Positions 276 to 52,500 of a DNA stretch of 64,000 nucleotides are shown one piece after another. This DNA is from Chryseobacterium echinoideorum (GTDB taxonomy: Bacteria > Bacteroidota > Bacteroidia > Flavobacteriales > Weeksellaceae). The position numbers and the translations under genes are program-made. The DNA lies in contig NZ_VKNW01000009.1 of the NCBI RefSeq assembly GCF_007474535.1, positions 1 through 64,000 on the forward strand. Direction: 5' to 3'. Below the pieces are notes generated by a model, which was given only the letters and a program-made list of their open reading frames with translations, did no database searches and was not told where the DNA came from. Positions within the stretch are counted from its first letter, which is position 1. Every line of letters starts with the position of its first letter.

Positions 276-1352
276 TTAAACAAAAGGCATCTTAACTACT
301 TTTGCCGGAATACTTTTATTTCTTACCTGAATGAATATTTCAGAGCCTATTTTGAAGTGAGGTTTATCAACATAAGCGATTCCTAAACCGATCTTTTTCA
401 TCGGAGATTGTGTACCGGAAGTCACTTTTCCTATTACGTTTCCTTCTGCATCTACAACGGAATAATCGTGTCTTGGAACACCTTTCTCAGTTAGCTCAAA
501 ACCTACCAATTTTCTGTTTATTCCTTCTTCTTTTTGTTTTGCAAAAGTTTCTTTTGATATAAAATCTTTGTCAAATTTAGTAATCCATCCTAATCCTGCT
601 TCAATTGGAGAAGTTGTGTCATCAATATCGTTTCCATATAGACAAAATCCTTTTTCAAGCCTTAAAGTATCTCTTGCAGCTAATCCGCATGGAATAATTC
701 CCTCTTCAGATCCTGCTTCTATAATAGCGTCCCATAGTTTTTCTGCAGATTCGTTTTTAAAATAAATTTCAAAACCGCCGCTTCCTGTGTAGCCTGTGTT
801 TGAGATAATTACATCATTTACACCGGCAACAGAACCAACAGTAAAGTTATAATATGGAATTTCAGAAAGATTTGTTTCAGTTAATTTCTGTAAAATTTCA
901 GTTGCTTTCGGTCCCTGAACTGCCAACAGAGACATTTCGTCCGAAGCATTTGTCATGACAGCACCAAAAGTATTGTATTTTGAAATGTGATCCCAATCTT
1001 TATCAATATTGGAAGCGTTTACTACAACGAAATATTTTTCATCATCCATTTTGTAAACGATAAGATCATCCACAATACCTCCGTTCTCGTTCGGAAGACA
1101 AGAATATTGAGCTTTTCCATTCTCAAGAGCGTTTACATTATTGGTGGTTACATACTGCAAAAGATCTTTTGCACCAGCTCCTTCAATAAAAAACTGTCCC
1201 ATGTGGGAAACGTCAAATAATCCTGCTTTTTCTCTTACGGCAAAGTGTTCTTCTGTTACTCCAGAATATTGTACAGGCATTTCAAAACCTGCAAAAGGTA
1301 CTATTTTCGCTCCCAAAGAAACGTGCTTATCATATAAAGCTGTTTTTTTCAT
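276..1352 (-). CDS. gcvT: Aminomethyltransferase (glycine cleavage system T protein)
   Basis: T protein of the glycine cleavage system: it takes the aminomethyl group from lipoylated H protein and, with tetrahydrofolate, releases ammonia and forms 5,10-methylene-THF in the cytosol. The 358-residue length is normal. The N-terminal folate-binding domain carries [10 protein letters not shown] (91-100), which holds the conserved Asp of T proteins, and VNASN (111-115). The C-terminal barrel domain begins near residue 280 and contains GLGIAYVD. It is the last gene of an operon with idi and a secreted protein (10-bp gap upstream). The gcvH and gcvP genes are not in this window. Confidence 0.96.
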
Positions 1353-1362
1353 ATGTAGATAT

Positions 1363-1839
1363 TTATTTTTTTATTTTAAAACTTTCAAAAGCTTCGTTAA
1401 AAAGCTTCATATAATTTCCGTTCCAGTGTTTATGCTGGCAATTGATGGTTATAAGGTAAAGCTCCTTGTTTTTTTGAAATACTTTTGTGACCCAGAATAT
1501 TTTTTCTTTTTCGTCTAAATATTCATACAGATATTCTGTGTAACCTTTTTTATTACCTGTATTTTTTACTGTTCTTTCATCATCTCCAGATTGATACAAT
1601 GCGAGAATAAATTTTTTCACTTCTGTTTTTGGCAAATCCAGATCATGATATTCAGAAATAGTAATTGCTCCAATCTGACTTGTAGGAAAAATATTTATAA
1701 TTCCCTCATCATTAGTCAGTTTCCATGTATCAGGAGTTTCTATGGAATAGTTTTCACTTTCGTAAAGCTCAGTTTTTATTTTTTGTGAAAATGAAGCAAT
1801 GCTGTATAAAAAAGTGAATAATAAAAATAATTTTTTCAT
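1363..1839 (-). CDS. Secreted protein of unknown function (PsbP/DUF3805-like size)
   Basis: This 158-residue protein has a clear Sec signal peptide (residues 1-19, hydrophobic core [14 protein letters not shown], ending SFS-Q). The mature part looks like a small alpha/beta fold with a [14 protein letters not shown] stretch near residue 31, a wording common in small secreted proteins of the PsbP-like type. No catalytic motif is visible. It sits 6 bp after idi and 10 bp before gcvT, so it is cotranscribed, but the neighbours do not reveal a function. The family assignment is a guess from overall look. Confidence 0.75.
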
Positions 1840-1845
1840 GTGTTT

Positions 1846-2355
1846 TTAAAAATGATATTTATATTCTTGGAGGATGATTTTAAACCATTCCGTGAAAAGA
1901 TCAGGGTTTTCTGAAATTTCTTTGTCTAAATTTTCTAATGAAATGTACCGTACTTCTTCTACTTCTGCTTCGTTAAGATTAAAATCATCACAATAAATTC
2001 CGGTAAATACGTGATCTAGTTCATGTTCCCACAATCCATCTCCAACATTGGCTTTGTAAATAAAATGAAATTTTTCTGAAATATCAGCATCAATCCCCAA
2101 TTCTTCCTTAAGTCTTCTCTTTGCACCCTCAAGGTAGGTTTCTCCAAATCTCGGATGCGAACATACAGCATTTGTCCATCTTAAAGGGGAGTGATATTTC
2201 CCGGTCGCACGTTTCTGTAAAAGCATTTCACCTTTTTCGTTAAATAAGAATACCGAAAATGCACGGTGAAGCAAACCATTGATATGTGCCTGCTGTTTTT
2301 CCATGAGACCTAAAACTTCATCTTGTGGATTTACTAATACTACCAACTCTTCCAT
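1846..2355 (-). CDS. idi: Isopentenyl-diphosphate delta-isomerase, type 1
   Basis: NUDIX-fold enzyme that interconverts isopentenyl and dimethylallyl diphosphate for isoprenoid, menaquinone and carotenoid synthesis. The 169-residue protein shows the type 1 active site: TNAVCSHP with Cys65 and WEHELDHVF with Glu110/Glu112, plus the degenerate NUDIX helix ETYLEGAKRRLKEELGI (72-88). It is the first gene of the idi-secreted protein-gcvT operon. A TAAATTTG -7 box (minus strand, 2361-2368) lies so close to the ATG that the mRNA may be leaderless. Confidence 0.95.
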   Translation of the reverse strand: MEELVVLVNPQDEVLGLMEKQQAHINGLLHRAFSVFLFNEKGEMLLQKRATGKYHSPLRWTNAVCSHPRFGETYLEGAKRRLKEELGIDADISEKFHFIYKANVGDGLWEHELDHVFTGIYCDDFNLNEAEVEEVRYISLENLDKEISENPDLFTEWFKIILQEYKYHF

Positions 2356-2360
2356 TCCTA

Positions 2361-2368
2361 CAAATTTA
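2361..2368 (-). promoter_or_regulatory. -7 promoter box (TAAATTTG) for idi
   Basis: It matches the Bacteroidota TAnnTTTG consensus on the minus strand, with its last base only 5 nt before the idi start codon. No TTG is seen at the usual -33 spacing, so confidence is moderate. Confidence 0.4.
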
Positions 2369-2567
2369 GGCTTAATACATGATTTTGTAAAATAAATGTT
2401 TAGTTTTTTTACTATTTATGAAAATATCATCTTTTATAATCATAAAAAATATAAGCTTAATTATGAAATATGTAATAAAATATTCACCATTGTCCTCTTT
2501 TAATCACTTTTTAGGTTAAATTTTTAACATAAACAACAATTGATAAAGTTGTTTGAAACATAAAACG

Positions 2568-2575
2568 TAACTTTG
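2568..2575 (+). promoter_or_regulatory. -7 promoter box (TAACTTTG) for the HAD gene
   Basis: Exact TAnnTTTG match. It overlaps an in-frame TTG at 2573, so transcription must begin after that codon. This settles the start of the following gene as the ATG at 2594. Confidence 0.55.
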
Positions 2576-2593
2576 CACTTTAAAATTACAGCG

Positions 2594-2995
2594 ATGGAAT
2601 TAGAATATATTGAGCACATCAGTCCCATTCTGAAAGACGGAATTAAAAATTATCTTATTGATATAGACGGAACAATTACGGATGATGTTCCCAACGAAGA
2701 GCCGGAAAGAATGGTAACCTGTGAACCATACCATGATGCTCTTGAAACGATTAACAAATGGTATGACGAAGGTCATCAAATTTGTTTTTTTACTTCACGT
2801 ACAGAAAATTTAAAGCAAATAACTATTGACTGGCTTGATAAGCATGGGTTTAAATATCACAGTGTTTTGTGCGGAAAGCCTCGAGGCGGAAACTATCACT
2901 GGATTGATAATCACCTTGTGAGAGCAACAAGATATAAAGGTAAATTTACCGATTTGGTTGAAAAGCAAGTTACCATAGAGGTTTTTAAAGATTAA
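2594..2995 (+). CDS. HAD-superfamily phosphatase-like protein
   Basis: Small (133-residue) soluble HAD-like protein. Motif I is LIDIDGTITDD (21-31), with the Asp nucleophile Asp23 and Asp25. FFTSRT is motif II-like, and WIDNHLVRA may serve as the distal acidic motif. Proteins of this size lack a full cap domain. Homologues in flavobacteria are sometimes labelled phosphoheptose isomerase, which the sequence does not support. The frame is open from a TTG at 2573, but the -7 box overlaps that codon, so the ATG at 2594 is preferred. The substrate is unknown. Confidence 0.85.
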   Translation: MELEYIEHISPILKDGIKNYLIDIDGTITDDVPNEEPERMVTCEPYHDALETINKWYDEGHQICFFTSRTENLKQITIDWLDKHGFKYHSVLCGKPRGGNYHWIDNHLVRATRYKGKFTDLVEKQVTIEVFKD

Positions 2996-3000
2996 ACAAA

Positions 3001-3075
3001 TTAAAAGATTTAAAAGTTATAGGTAAAGAATATCCTTTATATTAATTTTTTAAATCTTTCAACTTTTAAACAAGA
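3001..3075. repeat. AT-rich intergenic inverted repeat
   Basis: AAAGATTTAAAA near 3005 is mirrored by TTTTAAATCTTT near 3048-3059, and AAAAGTT by AACTTTT further in. The repeat lies between the HAD gene and serA. It resembles the degenerate A/T phrases seen upstream of ychF and accD in this window. It could form a weak hairpin but lacks the T run of a terminator. Confidence 0.4.
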
Positions 3076-3084
3076 TATTTATTT

Positions 3085-4041
3085 ATGAAAGTTTTGGCAA
3101 ATGACGGTTTAGATCAGTCAGGAATTGATGCATTAACGGAAAAAGGATTTGAAGTGATCACCCAAAAAGTTCCACAGGAGTCTCTTTTAAATTACATTAA
3201 TGACCATAAGATCCGTACTCTTTTGGTAAGAAGCGCCACTCAGGTAAAAAAAGATATTATAGATAACTGTCCTTCTTTGGAAATAATTGGACGCGGTGGA
3301 GTAGGAATGGATAATATTGATGTAGATTACGCAAGAGAGAAAGGAATTCATGTCATCAATACGCCTGCGGCATCTTCAGAATCGGTAGCTGAACTTGTTT
3401 TTGCACATTTGTTTTCTGGAGCAAGATTCTTACAGGATTCTAACAGAAAAATGCCTTTGGTAGGAGATACAGAATTTGCTTCACTCAAAAAAAACTATGC
3501 TGCAGGAATTGAGCTGAAAGGAAAAACTATCGGTATTGTTGGAATGGGAAGAATCGGTCAGGAAGTAGCAAAAATAGCATTAGGATTGGGTATGAGAGTG
3601 ATTGCTGCAGATAATATGATCGGAAAAGCCAGCATAAAAGTAACTTTTTATAATAATCAGTACATTAATGTAGACATTGAAACAGAACCGTTACAAGATG
3701 TATTGAAGCATGCGGATTTTATAACTCTTCATGTTCCGGCCCAGAAAAACGGTTATATGATTTCTAAGGAGGAATTTGAAATAATGAAAAATGGTGTTGC
3801 GATTATCAATTGCTCAAGAGGTGGGGTGATTGATGAAAAGGCTCTATTAGAGGCATTAGATTCAGGAAAAGTAAGATTTGCAGGACTGGATGTTTTCATT
3901 AACGAACCTACACCTTCCAAACAAATCATTTCTCATCCGAAAATTTCTGTGACTCCTCATACAGGTGCTTCAACACTTGAGGCCCAGGATAGGATCGGAC
4001 TTTCTTTAGCCGATCAGATTTCGAGTATTTTTCAAATGTAA
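3085..4041 (+). CDS. serA: D-3-phosphoglycerate dehydrogenase (short form)
   Basis: NAD-dependent D-2-hydroxyacid dehydrogenase, best read as the first enzyme of serine synthesis. The 318 residues include the nucleotide-binding GMGRIG (153-158), catalytic Arg245 in NCSRGG, Glu274 in NEP and His292 in PHTG. The short form lacks the C-terminal ACT domain found in E. coli SerA, so it may not be inhibited by serine. serC, often adjacent in Bacteroidota, is not here. Another 2-hydroxyacid substrate cannot be excluded, but the GGVGMDNID and PHTGAST wording favours SerA. Confidence 0.88.
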   Translation: MKVLANDGLDQSGIDALTEKGFEVITQKVPQESLLNYINDHKIRTLLVRSATQVKKDIIDNCPSLEIIGRGGVGMDNIDVDYAREKGIHVINTPAASSESVAELVFAHLFSGARFLQDSNRKMPLVGDTEFASLKKNYAAGIELKGKTIGIVGMGRIGQEVAKIALGLGMRVIAADNMIGKASIKVTFYNNQYINVDIETEPLQDVLKHADFITLHVPAQKNGYMISKEEFEIMKNGVAIINCSRGGVIDEKALLEALDSGKVRFAGLDVFINEPTPSKQIISHPKISVTPHTGASTLEAQDRIGLSLADQISSIFQM

Positions 4042-21689: not shown

Positions 21690-22019
21690 GGTTTAATTCA
21701 TTTAATATTTCAACATATTTTTCTTTTGTAAAAAGATCCTTATTTATATTATCTGCCATAACAAACGGAACCTTTATTTACACACCTGAAACATTACAAT
21801 AATTTTAAGCGATTTACATTTACCGGATCATTAATCCCCGGTCATCCATCCACGGATATTTTAGGTGTAATCAACCGTTTGAAGTGGCACAGAAGCCGTT
21901 CCGCCGACTTTTTTGATTTTGAGCTGCGAAAGTTCGTTGTACTCGTTTTAGGAGAGATAAAATGCTTATTACCAAAAAATTTAAAGACTTCTTTAATAAA
22001 AATGTAGCTGCGCTATAAT
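21690..22019. other. Decayed intergenic stretch with short ORF remnants
   Basis: About 330 bp without an intact gene. On the minus strand there is an ATG-initiated segment MADNINKDLFTKEKYVEILN (start at 21759) that runs into the AIM24 terminator and antisense sequence. There is also an ATG-less 28-codon segment (21861-21947) ending VGGTASVPLQTVDYT-stop, which looks like the C-terminus of a real protein. On the plus strand an ATG-less frame stays open for about 80 codons (21760-22013). Base composition at 21830-21950 is less AT-rich than the surroundings. This may be the residue of an older mobile element; the family was not identified. Confidence 0.35.
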
Positions 22020-22021
22020 AC

Positions 22022-22050
22022 AAAAAGCCTCGCAAAATGCGAGGCTTTTT
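22022..22050. terminator. Hairpin flanking the IS110 element (low-coordinate side)
   Basis: AAAAAGCCTCGCA pairs with TGCGAGGCTTTTT across a 3-nt loop. It lies about 22 bp outside the predicted right end of the IS110 element. The CTCGCA/TGCGAG core is shared with the hairpin at 23423. Confidence 0.85.
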
Positions 22051-22113
22051 ATTTATTTATCCGCGCAAAGATTCTGTGTTAAAAACCAAATGTTTTTCAA
22101 TATTTTTGTAAAA

Positions 22114-23178
22114 TTAAAGCGACCAAGAGTCAGCTTGTGTAGGGTGGAAATCTTTTTGATTTTTCGCCCTATTTTCTTCAAAGTTAGATTCGTAAAATGT
22201 TTTGTTTTTGAATAAGATGTACATTAATTCCAATAATTTTCTTTGTACGGCAACCAGACCTTTCATTTTTATTCCTGTTTTATTTACAATTCGGTAAAAT
22301 AATTCGCGATGCTCCTTATTTAATCGCACTGCTGTCATTGCAGGAAAATGAAGCGTTTTACGTAAATTTTTATTTCCTTTTTTGCTGATCCTAGGCTTGC
22401 CCTTTACTGATGTACCCGATTGTTTTTCCCGAATATCCAGCCCTGCATAACTCGTTAGTTGTTTTTTGTTTCGCATTAATTCAAAACCGTTGGTTTCTGC
22501 TAAAACTGCAATAGCCGTAGCTTTTCCAACACCCGGAATACTACTCAGAAAAGCCACACCATCGGTAGCTTCAGTGCTGTTTCGAACCTCTTTATGCATA
22601 TCGCTACTGATTTCTTTTTCCTGTTTCTTAAGCAATGAAATTCTTGCTTTCAAACGCTTGATGGTTTTAGCATTGGGCATAGCTTCGGTCTTTTCTGCGT
22701 GAAGCTGATTCATGCAAACAACACGCTCGCTAATCACTTGGTTTTTCTCCCGGCTTAACTGCTGAAGCTCTTTATATACTTTGTCTGAAGGGTGCCATTG
22801 CTCTAATTTTCTGCTTAATCCGAATTGTGCAATAGCGATGGAACAACTTTTATCAGTGATGGTTTTAATGTCCAAAGTACGCATGAAATTGCTTATTTTA
22901 TTGGGCAAAACAATTACTACTTTCTCTCCTTTATCATAAAGAAAATAAGCAAACCGCTCGTGATAAACTCCCGTAGACTCCATCACAAAAACGAGATCTG
23001 CATCGGTGCTTTTTTTCTCATAAACCCATTTAATCAGCTTTTTAAAACCTTTTTCATTGTTGCTGAAAATCTGATAATCTCTCGTTTCTGTAGTCAAATC
23101 TTCTTTCAATTGTCCTAAAGCAACTACAAGTTCATTCTGTGCAACATCGACTCCTAAAACCTGTTTTAATACTTTCAT
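22114..23178 (-). CDS. IS110-family transposase (DEDD recombinase)
   Basis: RNA-guided recombinase of IS110 elements, 354 residues. The N-terminal RuvC-like DEDD_Tnp_IS110 domain (about 5-155) has Asp11 in GVDVAQ, Glu67 in VMESTG and Asp109 in TITDKSCS. A coiled-coil-like linker follows (about 140-200). The C-terminal Transposase_20 domain (about 205-290) has SSIPGVGKATA, LTSYAGLDIREKQSGTS with the likely catalytic Ser254, and KGNKNLRKTL. The position where most relatives have the last Asp (DxxD) reads Asp-Lys-Ser-Cys. The frame is otherwise complete. Confidence 0.95.
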   Translation of the reverse strand: MKVLKQVLGVDVAQNELVVALGQLKEDLTTETRDYQIFSNNEKGFKKLIKWVYEKKSTDADLVFVMESTGVYHERFAYFLYDKGEKVVIVLPNKISNFMRTLDIKTITDKSCSIAIAQFGLSRKLEQWHPSDKVYKELQQLSREKNQVISERVVCMNQLHAEKTEAMPNAKTIKRLKARISLLKKQEKEISSDMHKEVRNSTEATDGVAFLSSIPGVGKATAIAVLAETNGFELMRNKKQLTSYAGLDIREKQSGTSVKGKPRISKKGNKNLRKTLHFPAMTAVRLNKEHRELFYRIVNKTGIKMKGLVAVQRKLLELMYILFKNKTFYESNFEENRAKNQKDFHPTQADSWSL

Positions 23179-23214
23179 ATCTGCAAATTTTAATAAAGCA
23201 AAATCTTCCTTCGT

Positions 23215-23380
23215 TTTGTCTCCTGACTGTTATTCTAGATGTTTAATAAACTCTTTACATTCTGTTCAAACTCTAAAAGAAGTAAAGGAATGAGGATGTT
23301 TCTTTGCGCGAATATATCTTTTAGATTATTGAGCCCCAAATGTTCTCTCATCCCTTTTGCTTTTTTTGTAAATTTATTAC
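23215..23380 (-). ncRNA. Candidate IS110 bridge RNA
   Basis: The leader upstream of the transposase is non-coding and folds by hand into two stem-loops on the minus strand. Loop 1 has an 8-bp stem (23354-23347 with 23294-23287, one G-U) and an inner ATCT/AGAT hairpin. Its strands contain GCUCAA (23334-23329) and CGCGCAAAGA (23310-23301). Loop 2 has an 11-bp stem with one bulge (23278-23268 with 23244-23233). Its loop has ACAGAAU (23265-23259) and GAGUUU (23253-23248). These four pieces match or complement sequences beside an AA core at the element ends and flanks, the arrangement known for target- and donor-binding loops of IS110 bridge RNAs. The transcript ends are estimates. Confidence 0.6.
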
Positions 23381-23384
23381 TTTA

Positions 23385-23392
23385 CAAACATA
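23385..23392 (-). promoter_or_regulatory. -7 promoter box (TATGTTTG) at the IS110 left end
   Basis: Exact TAnnTTTG on the minus strand, just inside the predicted left end. No TTG is seen at the -33 position in the integrated form. In a circle joined at the inner AA core, the right end would supply TTTGG, giving TTG-N20-TATGTTTG. This suggests a junction promoter for the leader RNA. Confidence 0.55.
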
Positions 23393-23422
23393 GGAGTTTC
23401 CCGACTTTGAGCAGATAGAAAT

Positions 23423-23448
23423 AACCCCTCGCAATTTTGCGAGGGGTT
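23423..23448. terminator. Hairpin flanking the IS110 element (high-coordinate side)
   Basis: AACCCCTCGCAA pairs perfectly with TTGCGAGGGGTT around a 2-nt loop; a weak T tract (TTTGTTTA) follows. It may terminate transcription coming from the IS side, or belong to the same intergenic repeat class as the hairpin at 22022. Confidence 0.75.
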
Positions 23449-23533
23449 TGTTTATATATCCTAATTACCTCCATTCAGTTGTGTTTTTCTACCATTCGGT
23501 TATATAAAGTTGATTGAGGATACTTTTCCGACA

Positions 23534-52317: not shown

Positions 52318-52392
52318 GGGTTCTTAGCTCAGTTGGTTCAGAGCATCTGGTTTACACCCAGAGGGTCGGGGGTTCGAATCCCTCAGGACCCA
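52318..52392 (+). tRNA. tRNA-Val (anticodon TAC)
   Basis: Full cloverleaf of 75 nt: acceptor GGGTTCT/AGGACCC with discriminator A, D stem GCTC/GAGC, anticodon stem TCTGG/CCAGA with loop TTTACAC (anticodon TAC), and T arm GGGGGTTCGAATCCCTC. The 3' CCA is not encoded. Confidence 0.97.
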
Positions 52393-52425: not shown

Positions 52426-52500
52426 GGGTTCTTAGCTCAGTTGGTTCAGAGCATCTGGTTTACACCCAGAGGGTCGGGGGTTCGAATCCCTCAGGACCCA
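52426..52500 (+). tRNA. tRNA-Val (anticodon TAC), second identical copy
   Basis: Identical over all 75 nt to the copy at 52318-52392, after a 33-bp spacer. Both are read from one promoter and end at the hairpin at 52503. Identity points to recent duplication or gene conversion. Confidence 0.97.

What the first reader, a model, noticed from the sequence alone, without database searches (positions are those of the whole stretch)
23215..23392. Non-coding leader of the IS110 element looks like a bridge RNA gene
Seen: the roughly 220 bp between the element end and the transposase start carry no ORF. They begin with a TATGTTTG promoter box and fold by hand into two consecutive stem-loops (stem 23354-23347/23294-23287 with an inner hairpin; stem 23278-23268/23244-23233 with one bulge and a 23-nt loop). 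Established: IS110 elements such as IS621 encode, upstream of the transposase, an RNA with a target-binding and a donor-binding loop that guides recombination. Inference: this is the bridge RNA of a Chryseobacterium-type IS110, transcribed from a flavobacterial sigma-factor promoter.
Basis: partly seen in the sequence, partly recalled or inferred. Interest (0 to 1): 0.85.

Follow-up and report, generated by a model that had tools for sequence, protein, structure and literature searches.

The report
Bridge RNA of Bacteroidota IS110 element
The non-coding stretch in front of this jumping gene encodes a guide RNA that base-pairs with the DNA site where the element inserts; the system is of a known kind, but its enzyme lineage lacks one of the four catalytic acids thought to be essential.

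Summary
The leader of the minus-strand IS110 element is a bridge RNA gene. A covariance model from 49 related leaders, leaving out the window and its two nearest relatives, finds it at 23360-23200 (143.5 bits, E 1.9e-34). Its helices covary: 96.2% of cells paired, 30 of 34 pairs with double changes.

Guides match targets. In 45 non-redundant elements the right guide matches its target at 213 of 225 positions (shuffled 78.9, sd 7.6, 0 of 2000); the left guide matches more loosely.

The element is 22069-23396, core CT. Circularisation creates TTG-N20-TATGTTTG, a Bacteroidota-type promoter (38 of 47 circles, 2 of 53 integrated). Its second lacks covariation, and the RNA runs past 23215, to about 23200.

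The surprise is the enzyme: 55 of 55 clade rows lack the fourth Asp of DEDD (mostly Cys or Ala); 36 of 36 scorable rows outside keep it. In IS621 its mutation abolishes recombination. Three clade elements are 9-12 kb and carry metal-resistance and other ion-transport genes. No RNA or activity was measured.

The parts
22069..23396 (-). whole IS110 element between and including the two CT cores (1326 bp with one core)
   Evidence: ends shared with relatives and with a second copy in the genome
22069..22070 (-). right-end CT core
23395..23396 (-). left-end CT core
22114..23178 (-). IS110 recombinase, 354 aa
22843..22845 (-). codon of Cys112, aligned with IS621 Asp105
22087..22089 (-). TTG that lies 20 nt upstream of TATGTTTG in the joined circle
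23385..23392 (-). TATGTTTG, sigma-A type -7 box
23200..23380 (-). predicted bridge RNA, about 181 nt; start inferred from the -12 to -5 place of the box, end from the last helix
23285..23356 (-). target-binding loop: stem 23356-23344/23296-23285 and inner hairpin 23330-23324/23318-23311
23332..23340 (-). left target guide UUUGGGGCU
23302..23308 (-). right target guide CGCAAAG (7 nt; the match to the present site runs to 9 nt, 23310-23302)
23204..23280 (-). donor-binding loop: outer stem 23280-23275/23209-23204 and inner hairpin 23254-23247/23245-23237
23259..23266 (-). left donor guide AACAGAAU, same as the right end ACAGAAT
23220..23224 (-). right donor guide AGGAG, complement of the left end CTCCT
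23397..23403 (-). left target, 7 nt next to the core
22064..22068 (-). right target, 5 nt next to the core (TTGCG)

Best explanation
The leader is the bridge RNA gene of a 1326-bp IS110-group element. On excision the right end joins the left end through the CT core; this places a TTG 20 nt upstream of TATGTTTG and so completes a Bacteroidota-type promoter (sequence shown, use inferred). It would drive an RNA of about 181 nt with a target-binding loop and a donor-binding loop. The left target guide (7 nt plus core) pairs with the bottom strand and the right target guide (core plus 5 nt) with the top strand of a 14-bp site (shown by covariation); the donor loop matches the element's own joined ends. 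The recombinase then exchanges strands at CT (inferred from IS621). In this element the right guide reads the conserved arm of a repeated extragenic palindrome while the left guide faces its variable centre, which would explain the loose left match. The recombinase belongs to a clade without the fourth Asp of the DEDD tetrad (identity shown; activity inferred from multiple copies).
For: Independent covariance model hit, 143.5 bits. Covarying helices, 30 of 34 pairs, 0 of 500 shuffles as high on any of five measures. Right guide against right target 213 of 225, left guide 136 of 225 and 47 of 90, each 0 of 2000 shuffles; chance level just outside both guides. Six of six left junctions in genome G002 carry the 9-nt left guide sequence. 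Right donor guide AGGAG in 51 of 52 leaders against left end CTCCT in 87 of 87. TTG at exactly 20 nt in 38 of 47 circles and 2 of 53 integrated elements.
Against: No transcript was observed. The window's left guide fits its two present sites poorly: 1 and 3 of 7 exact, 5 and 6 of 7 with G-T pairs. The window's single-sequence minimum-energy fold does not show the conserved donor loop. The left donor guide reads GT where the core is CT. One of 45 elements, L124, matches none of the five right-target positions. Handshake pairing at the donor loop is weak (18 of 45 against 14.0, sd 1.8). The recombinase lacks a residue needed in IS621.
Confidence: 0.96

Rival explanations
1. The leader is a structured 5' untranslated region that only controls transposase expression and guides nothing.
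For: It lies directly upstream of the ATG and folds.
Against: Two loop segments covary with DNA outside the element, each with a sharp edge; a leader that only regulates has no reason to track the insertion site.
Confidence: 0.02
2. The element is dead or moved only in trans: without the fourth Asp the enzyme cannot work, and another IS110 recombinase moves it.
For: Mutation of D105 abolishes IS621 recombination (PMC11208158, passages). The left guide fits the present sites poorly.
Against: The frame is open; the second copy has the same 88-bp ends; a protein search of the own genome found only this one match at E <= 0.001; clade members are multi-copy; the residue is lost across one whole clade, with transposase and RNA kept.
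Confidence: 0.12
3. The enzyme is active, and an acid elsewhere, for example the clade-specific Glu16, takes the place of Asp105, so that the active site is DEDD-like in space.
For: Glu16 in 52 of 55 clade rows; outside it Thr or Ser are the commonest.
Against: No structure was made; no acidic residue near position 112 is conserved in the clade (position 114 is E in 24 of 55, Ile in the window).
Confidence: 0.25

Closest known systems
IS621 bridge RNA and recombinase (PMC11208160, PMC11208158)
   Same: RNA in the left end upstream of the recombinase; target loop then donor loop; CT core; promoter completed in the circle; left guide of 9 nt with core; insertion into extragenic palindromes
   Different: Right target guide naturally 7 nt with core here (4 in the IS621 structure); Bacteroidota-type promoter instead of sigma-70; fourth Asp of DEDD replaced; sequence match E 1.6e-24 only
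ISCro4 (PDB 9t56)
   Same: Second sequence match in the PDB, E 3.5e-24
   Different: Keeps Asp where the window protein has Cys112
seekRNA of IS1111 and IS110 types (PMC11187229, passages)
   Same: Same kind of guide RNA from the non-coding region
   Different: In IS1111 the region lies downstream of the transposase; here upstream
D-bearing IS110 relatives in Bacteroidota (L143, L138, L134, L140, L139, L141, L050, L018, L133, L135, L017)
   Same: Model R1 finds a related RNA upstream of the transposase, 28-68 bits
   Different: They keep the fourth Asp

Membership tests
IS110 family recombinase | RuvC-like PF01548 and Transposase_20 PF02371 domains | tested here: met
   both above cut-off; NF033542 183.3 bits, cut-off 140
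IS110 family recombinase | DEDD tetrad | tested here: not met
   D11, E67, D109 kept, fourth position Cys112
IS110 family recombinase | conserved Ser in the Tnp domain | tested here: met
   aligned Ser kept at 254 and 257
IS110 group bridge RNA | structured RNA in a long left end, short right end | tested here: met
   leader 218 nt, right end 45 nt with core; structure
IS110 group bridge RNA | two loops whose strands are complementary to target and donor | tested here: met
   target by covariation; donor by sequence match only, as the ends hardly vary
IS110 group bridge RNA | promoter completed across the joined ends | tested here: met
   sequence only: 38 of 47 circles, 2 of 53 integrated
IS110 group bridge RNA | RNA expressed and bound by the recombinase | not testable with these tools
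   needs RNA sequencing and binding assay
IS1111 group | long right end with the RNA downstream of the transposase | tested here: not met
   right end only 45 nt with core; RNA upstream

The most novel reading that the evidence does not exclude
A Bacteroidota-wide clade of bridge recombinases catalyses RNA-guided recombination with a three-acid active site, Cys or Ala standing where IS621 needs Asp105, reads a natural 14-bp target, and in one branch has grown into 9-12 kb transposons that carry ACR3-type, chromate, MerT-type and sulfate transport genes to one guide-defined site.
Probability: 0.55. Interest if true: 0.78.

Novelty: new variant of a known kind. Interest (0 to 1): 0.62.

Why it matters
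Bridge recombinases are being developed as programmable DNA-rearrangement tools. This clade offers natural examples with a longer right guide and a different active site, which makes the role of the fourth acidic residue directly testable. The cargo-bearing branch suggests that bridge RNAs move whole operons in nature, not only minimal insertion sequences.

Tried and rejected
The Rfam gathering search of the window found two tRNAs and a 5S rRNA and nothing at the leader. One scan of viral contigs found no relative of the recombinase; plasmid hits were all below 60% identity. RNAalifold's five pairs between leader bases 1-5 and AGGAG are not taken as a helix: those bases lie upstream of the promoter, and the match is that of donor guide to left end. 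Handshake pairing at the donor loop was too weak to claim (18 of 45 against 14.0, and 19 against 13.8). A compensating acid for the lost Asp was looked for; Glu16 is clade-specific (52 of 55), but nothing shows that it does the job. IS621's water-holding Thr12 is absent inside and outside the clade, so it explains nothing. No orthologous empty site for the window insertion was found; the nearest are related palindromes in other genomes of the genus. No structure prediction was run.

Rows dropped: of 93 loci, 6 lacked a left-end motif in the stretch searched, three of these cut by a contig end. The 87 others gave 54 clusters at 92% identity. L082 and L125, with long leaders, were left out of A2 (52 rows). 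Of the 54 clusters 45 entered the guide test; left out were L013, L049, L064, L075, L082, L085, L107, L117 and L125, for want of a right end within 900 nt, of a full left flank, or of an A2 row.

Full report
What is there. The window holds a 354-aa IS110 recombinase on the minus strand, 22114-23178, with PF01548 and PF02371, NF033542 above its cut-off and IS621 as the best solved relative. A second copy in the same genome is broken at two contig ends; its 88-bp matches bracket the element. Relatives fix the ends: of 93 loci, 87 have a left end, 77 of these CTCCTATGTTTG, and 64 a right end within 900 nt, 61 of these AACACAGAATCT. With core CT the element is 22069-23396, and the leader to the ATG is 218 nt.

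Structure. The 87 leaders form 54 clusters, of which 52 were aligned (A2). A structure of target-loop stem, inner hairpin, donor-loop outer stem and donor-loop hairpin pairs 96.2% of 1757 cells, against 81.7% shuffled and at most 53.8% when slid; 30 of 34 pairs show a change on both sides. The structure was derived from the same alignment (and by eye), so the slid control leans towards it, and related sequences can exceed shuffles; the number of double changes (300 cells against 82) is the stronger sign. A model built from 49 leaders, without the window and its two nearest relatives, scores the window at 143.5 bits. The other window hits were an antisense overlap at 23281-23399 (22.2 bits, E 0.00096) and three of 11.7 bits or less. 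The model also finds RNAs upstream of the transposase in 11 of 36 relatives that keep DEDD, at 28 to 68 bits, and weaker or no matches in the other 25; of 7 clade loci in that call it found 6, missing L011, whose 5' part is lost.

Guides. The targets were fixed by the element ends, and the alignment used leaders only, so the test is not circular. In 45 non-redundant elements the right guide is complementary to the five bases after the core at 213 of 225 positions; 37 elements match all five, 7 match four and one (L124) none. The next three positions are at chance (23 matches at 128 positions with letters; shuffled 19.9, sd 3.1, 410 of 2000 as high). The left guide matches at 136 of 225 (positions 2-6; shuffled 61.7) and 47 of 90 (positions 7-8; shuffled 27.0), and is at chance beyond (46 of 180; shuffled 44.3). 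Allowing a shift of up to 2 nt, 38 of 45 match five or more of seven, against 4.5 on average and 12 at most in 300 shuffles. In rows with four or more left matches, 18 mismatches are G-T compatible, 6 are reverse transitions and 30 transversions. In genome G002 six of six left junctions with different flanks read GTTTTGGCT, as does the guide of that element.

Donor loop. The right donor guide AGGAG stands in 51 of 52 leaders, and the left donor guide holds CAGAAT in most. They match the two ends, CTCCT and ACAGAAT, but the left guide reads GT where the core is CT. Since the ends hardly vary, this is a match and not covariation.

The window's own targets. Both copies lie in a palindrome, GCNCAAAG-centre-CTTTGNGC, beside terminator-like hairpins. 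Of seven stretches taken from other genomes of the genus, five hold related palindromes that run across the insertion point without the element. A strict pattern finds 12 matches in the window's genome, both strands counted and several being the two strands of one site, against 2 for the reversed control. The right guide reads the conserved arm and the left guide the variable centre. This would account for the weak left match of copies A and B (1 and 3 of 7 exact, 5 and 6 with G-T). Insertion of IS110 elements into repetitive extragenic palindromes is known (PMC11208160, section read).

Promoter. TAnnTTTG at -12 to -5 is the flavobacterial sigma-A box (PMC9723704, passages); that TTG is its upstream partner is recalled. 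The joined circle puts TTG exactly 20 nt upstream in 38 of 47 elements, and no other spacing from 15 to 26 has more than 3. In the integrated state it is there in 2 of 53, and in neither copy of this genome. So the promoter looks complete only in the circle, as reported for IS621 with a sigma-70 type promoter (PMC11208160, section read).

The catalytic residue. In IS621 the tetrad is D11, E60, D102 and D105, and mutation of D11, E60, D102, D105 or S241 abolished recombination (PMC11208158, passages). The window has D11, E67, D109 and Cys112, aligned without a gap near the site. In a tree of 92 rows (90 different) the 55 rows without Asp form one side of a 100/100 branch and the 36 rows with Asp the other; one row lacks the position. 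The residue is C in 28, A in 22, M in 3 and S in 2; with redundant members counted, 0 of 90 clade loci have Asp. The clade spans several Bacteroidota families and one Ignavibacteriota bin. Multiple copies argue for activity: five hits of equal score in G213, four in G726, two copies here. Activity is inferred, not shown. A text search for IS110, DEDD and Bacteroid together found no paper; that library lacks most subscription journals and bioRxiv, so prior notice elsewhere is not excluded.

Cargo branch. Some clade members with a guide for TTTTGCTT/CT have no right end within 900 nt. In L176 and L178 the element is 11,943 bp and in L177 9,263 bp, with right target CTTTTCTTTGG at the far end; by inspection the right guide fits 4 of 5 variable bases there, the fifth a G-T, in L176 and L178, and 5 of 5 in L177. 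Pfam finds inside them an SBF-family (ACR3-like) transporter, a GNAT acetyltransferase, a low-molecular-weight phosphatase match below its cut-off (possibly an arsenate reductase), a flavin oxidoreductase, an ArsR-type regulator, a protein with MerT and HMA domains, a TonB receptor, a sulfate permease and a chromate transporter; the next gene outside has a ThiF domain (ten proteins tested). Six loci (L090, L093, L095, L096, L100, L101) have the right end about 1,976 bp after the transposase, with one 511-aa permease-like ORF between. The right ends of several others lie outside the DNA held. A paper search found none with three of the terms IS110, cargo genes, arsenite and Chryseobacterium.

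Verdict. The RNA is a new member of a known kind; the recombinase clade and its cargo branch make it a variant.

Noticed in passing
22843-22845 (codon 112 of the recombinase) and 55 clade rows of the tree: The fourth Asp of the DEDD tetrad is replaced in the whole sampled clade (28 C, 22 A, 3 M, 2 S), against Asp in 36 of 36 scorable rows outside.
   Followed up: partly
L176, L177, L178; L090, L093, L095, L096, L100, L101: IS110-type elements of the same clade with 2 to 10 kb of passenger genes (ACR3-like, chromate, MerT-type and sulfate transport) and a guide-matching target at both ends.
   Followed up: partly
22014-22070 and 23397-23456; G000 contigs C12, C13, C14: Repeated extragenic palindromes GCNCAAAG-centre-CTTTGNGC next to terminator-like hairpins; both copies of the element sit in one, and in other contigs they lie near RHS-repeat genes.
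   Followed up: partly
L193, and L189-L192 (G002): L193 is a 226-bp derivative with both ends, part of the bridge RNA and no transposase, MITE-like; L189-L192 are left-end fragments at other sites.
   Followed up: partly
L194 (G726), 580-3357: Two copies of a clade element stand head to tail, about 1.4 kb each, sharing a target-like spacer.
   Followed up: no
G000 C14:1-88 and C15:1-88: The second copy of the element breaks the assembly; its left flank holds the end of an HTH-like ORF and its right flank the end of another ORF in an RHS-type locus.
   Followed up: no
52318-52392 and 52426-52500: Two tRNA genes of equal Rfam score, 33 bp apart.
   Followed up: no
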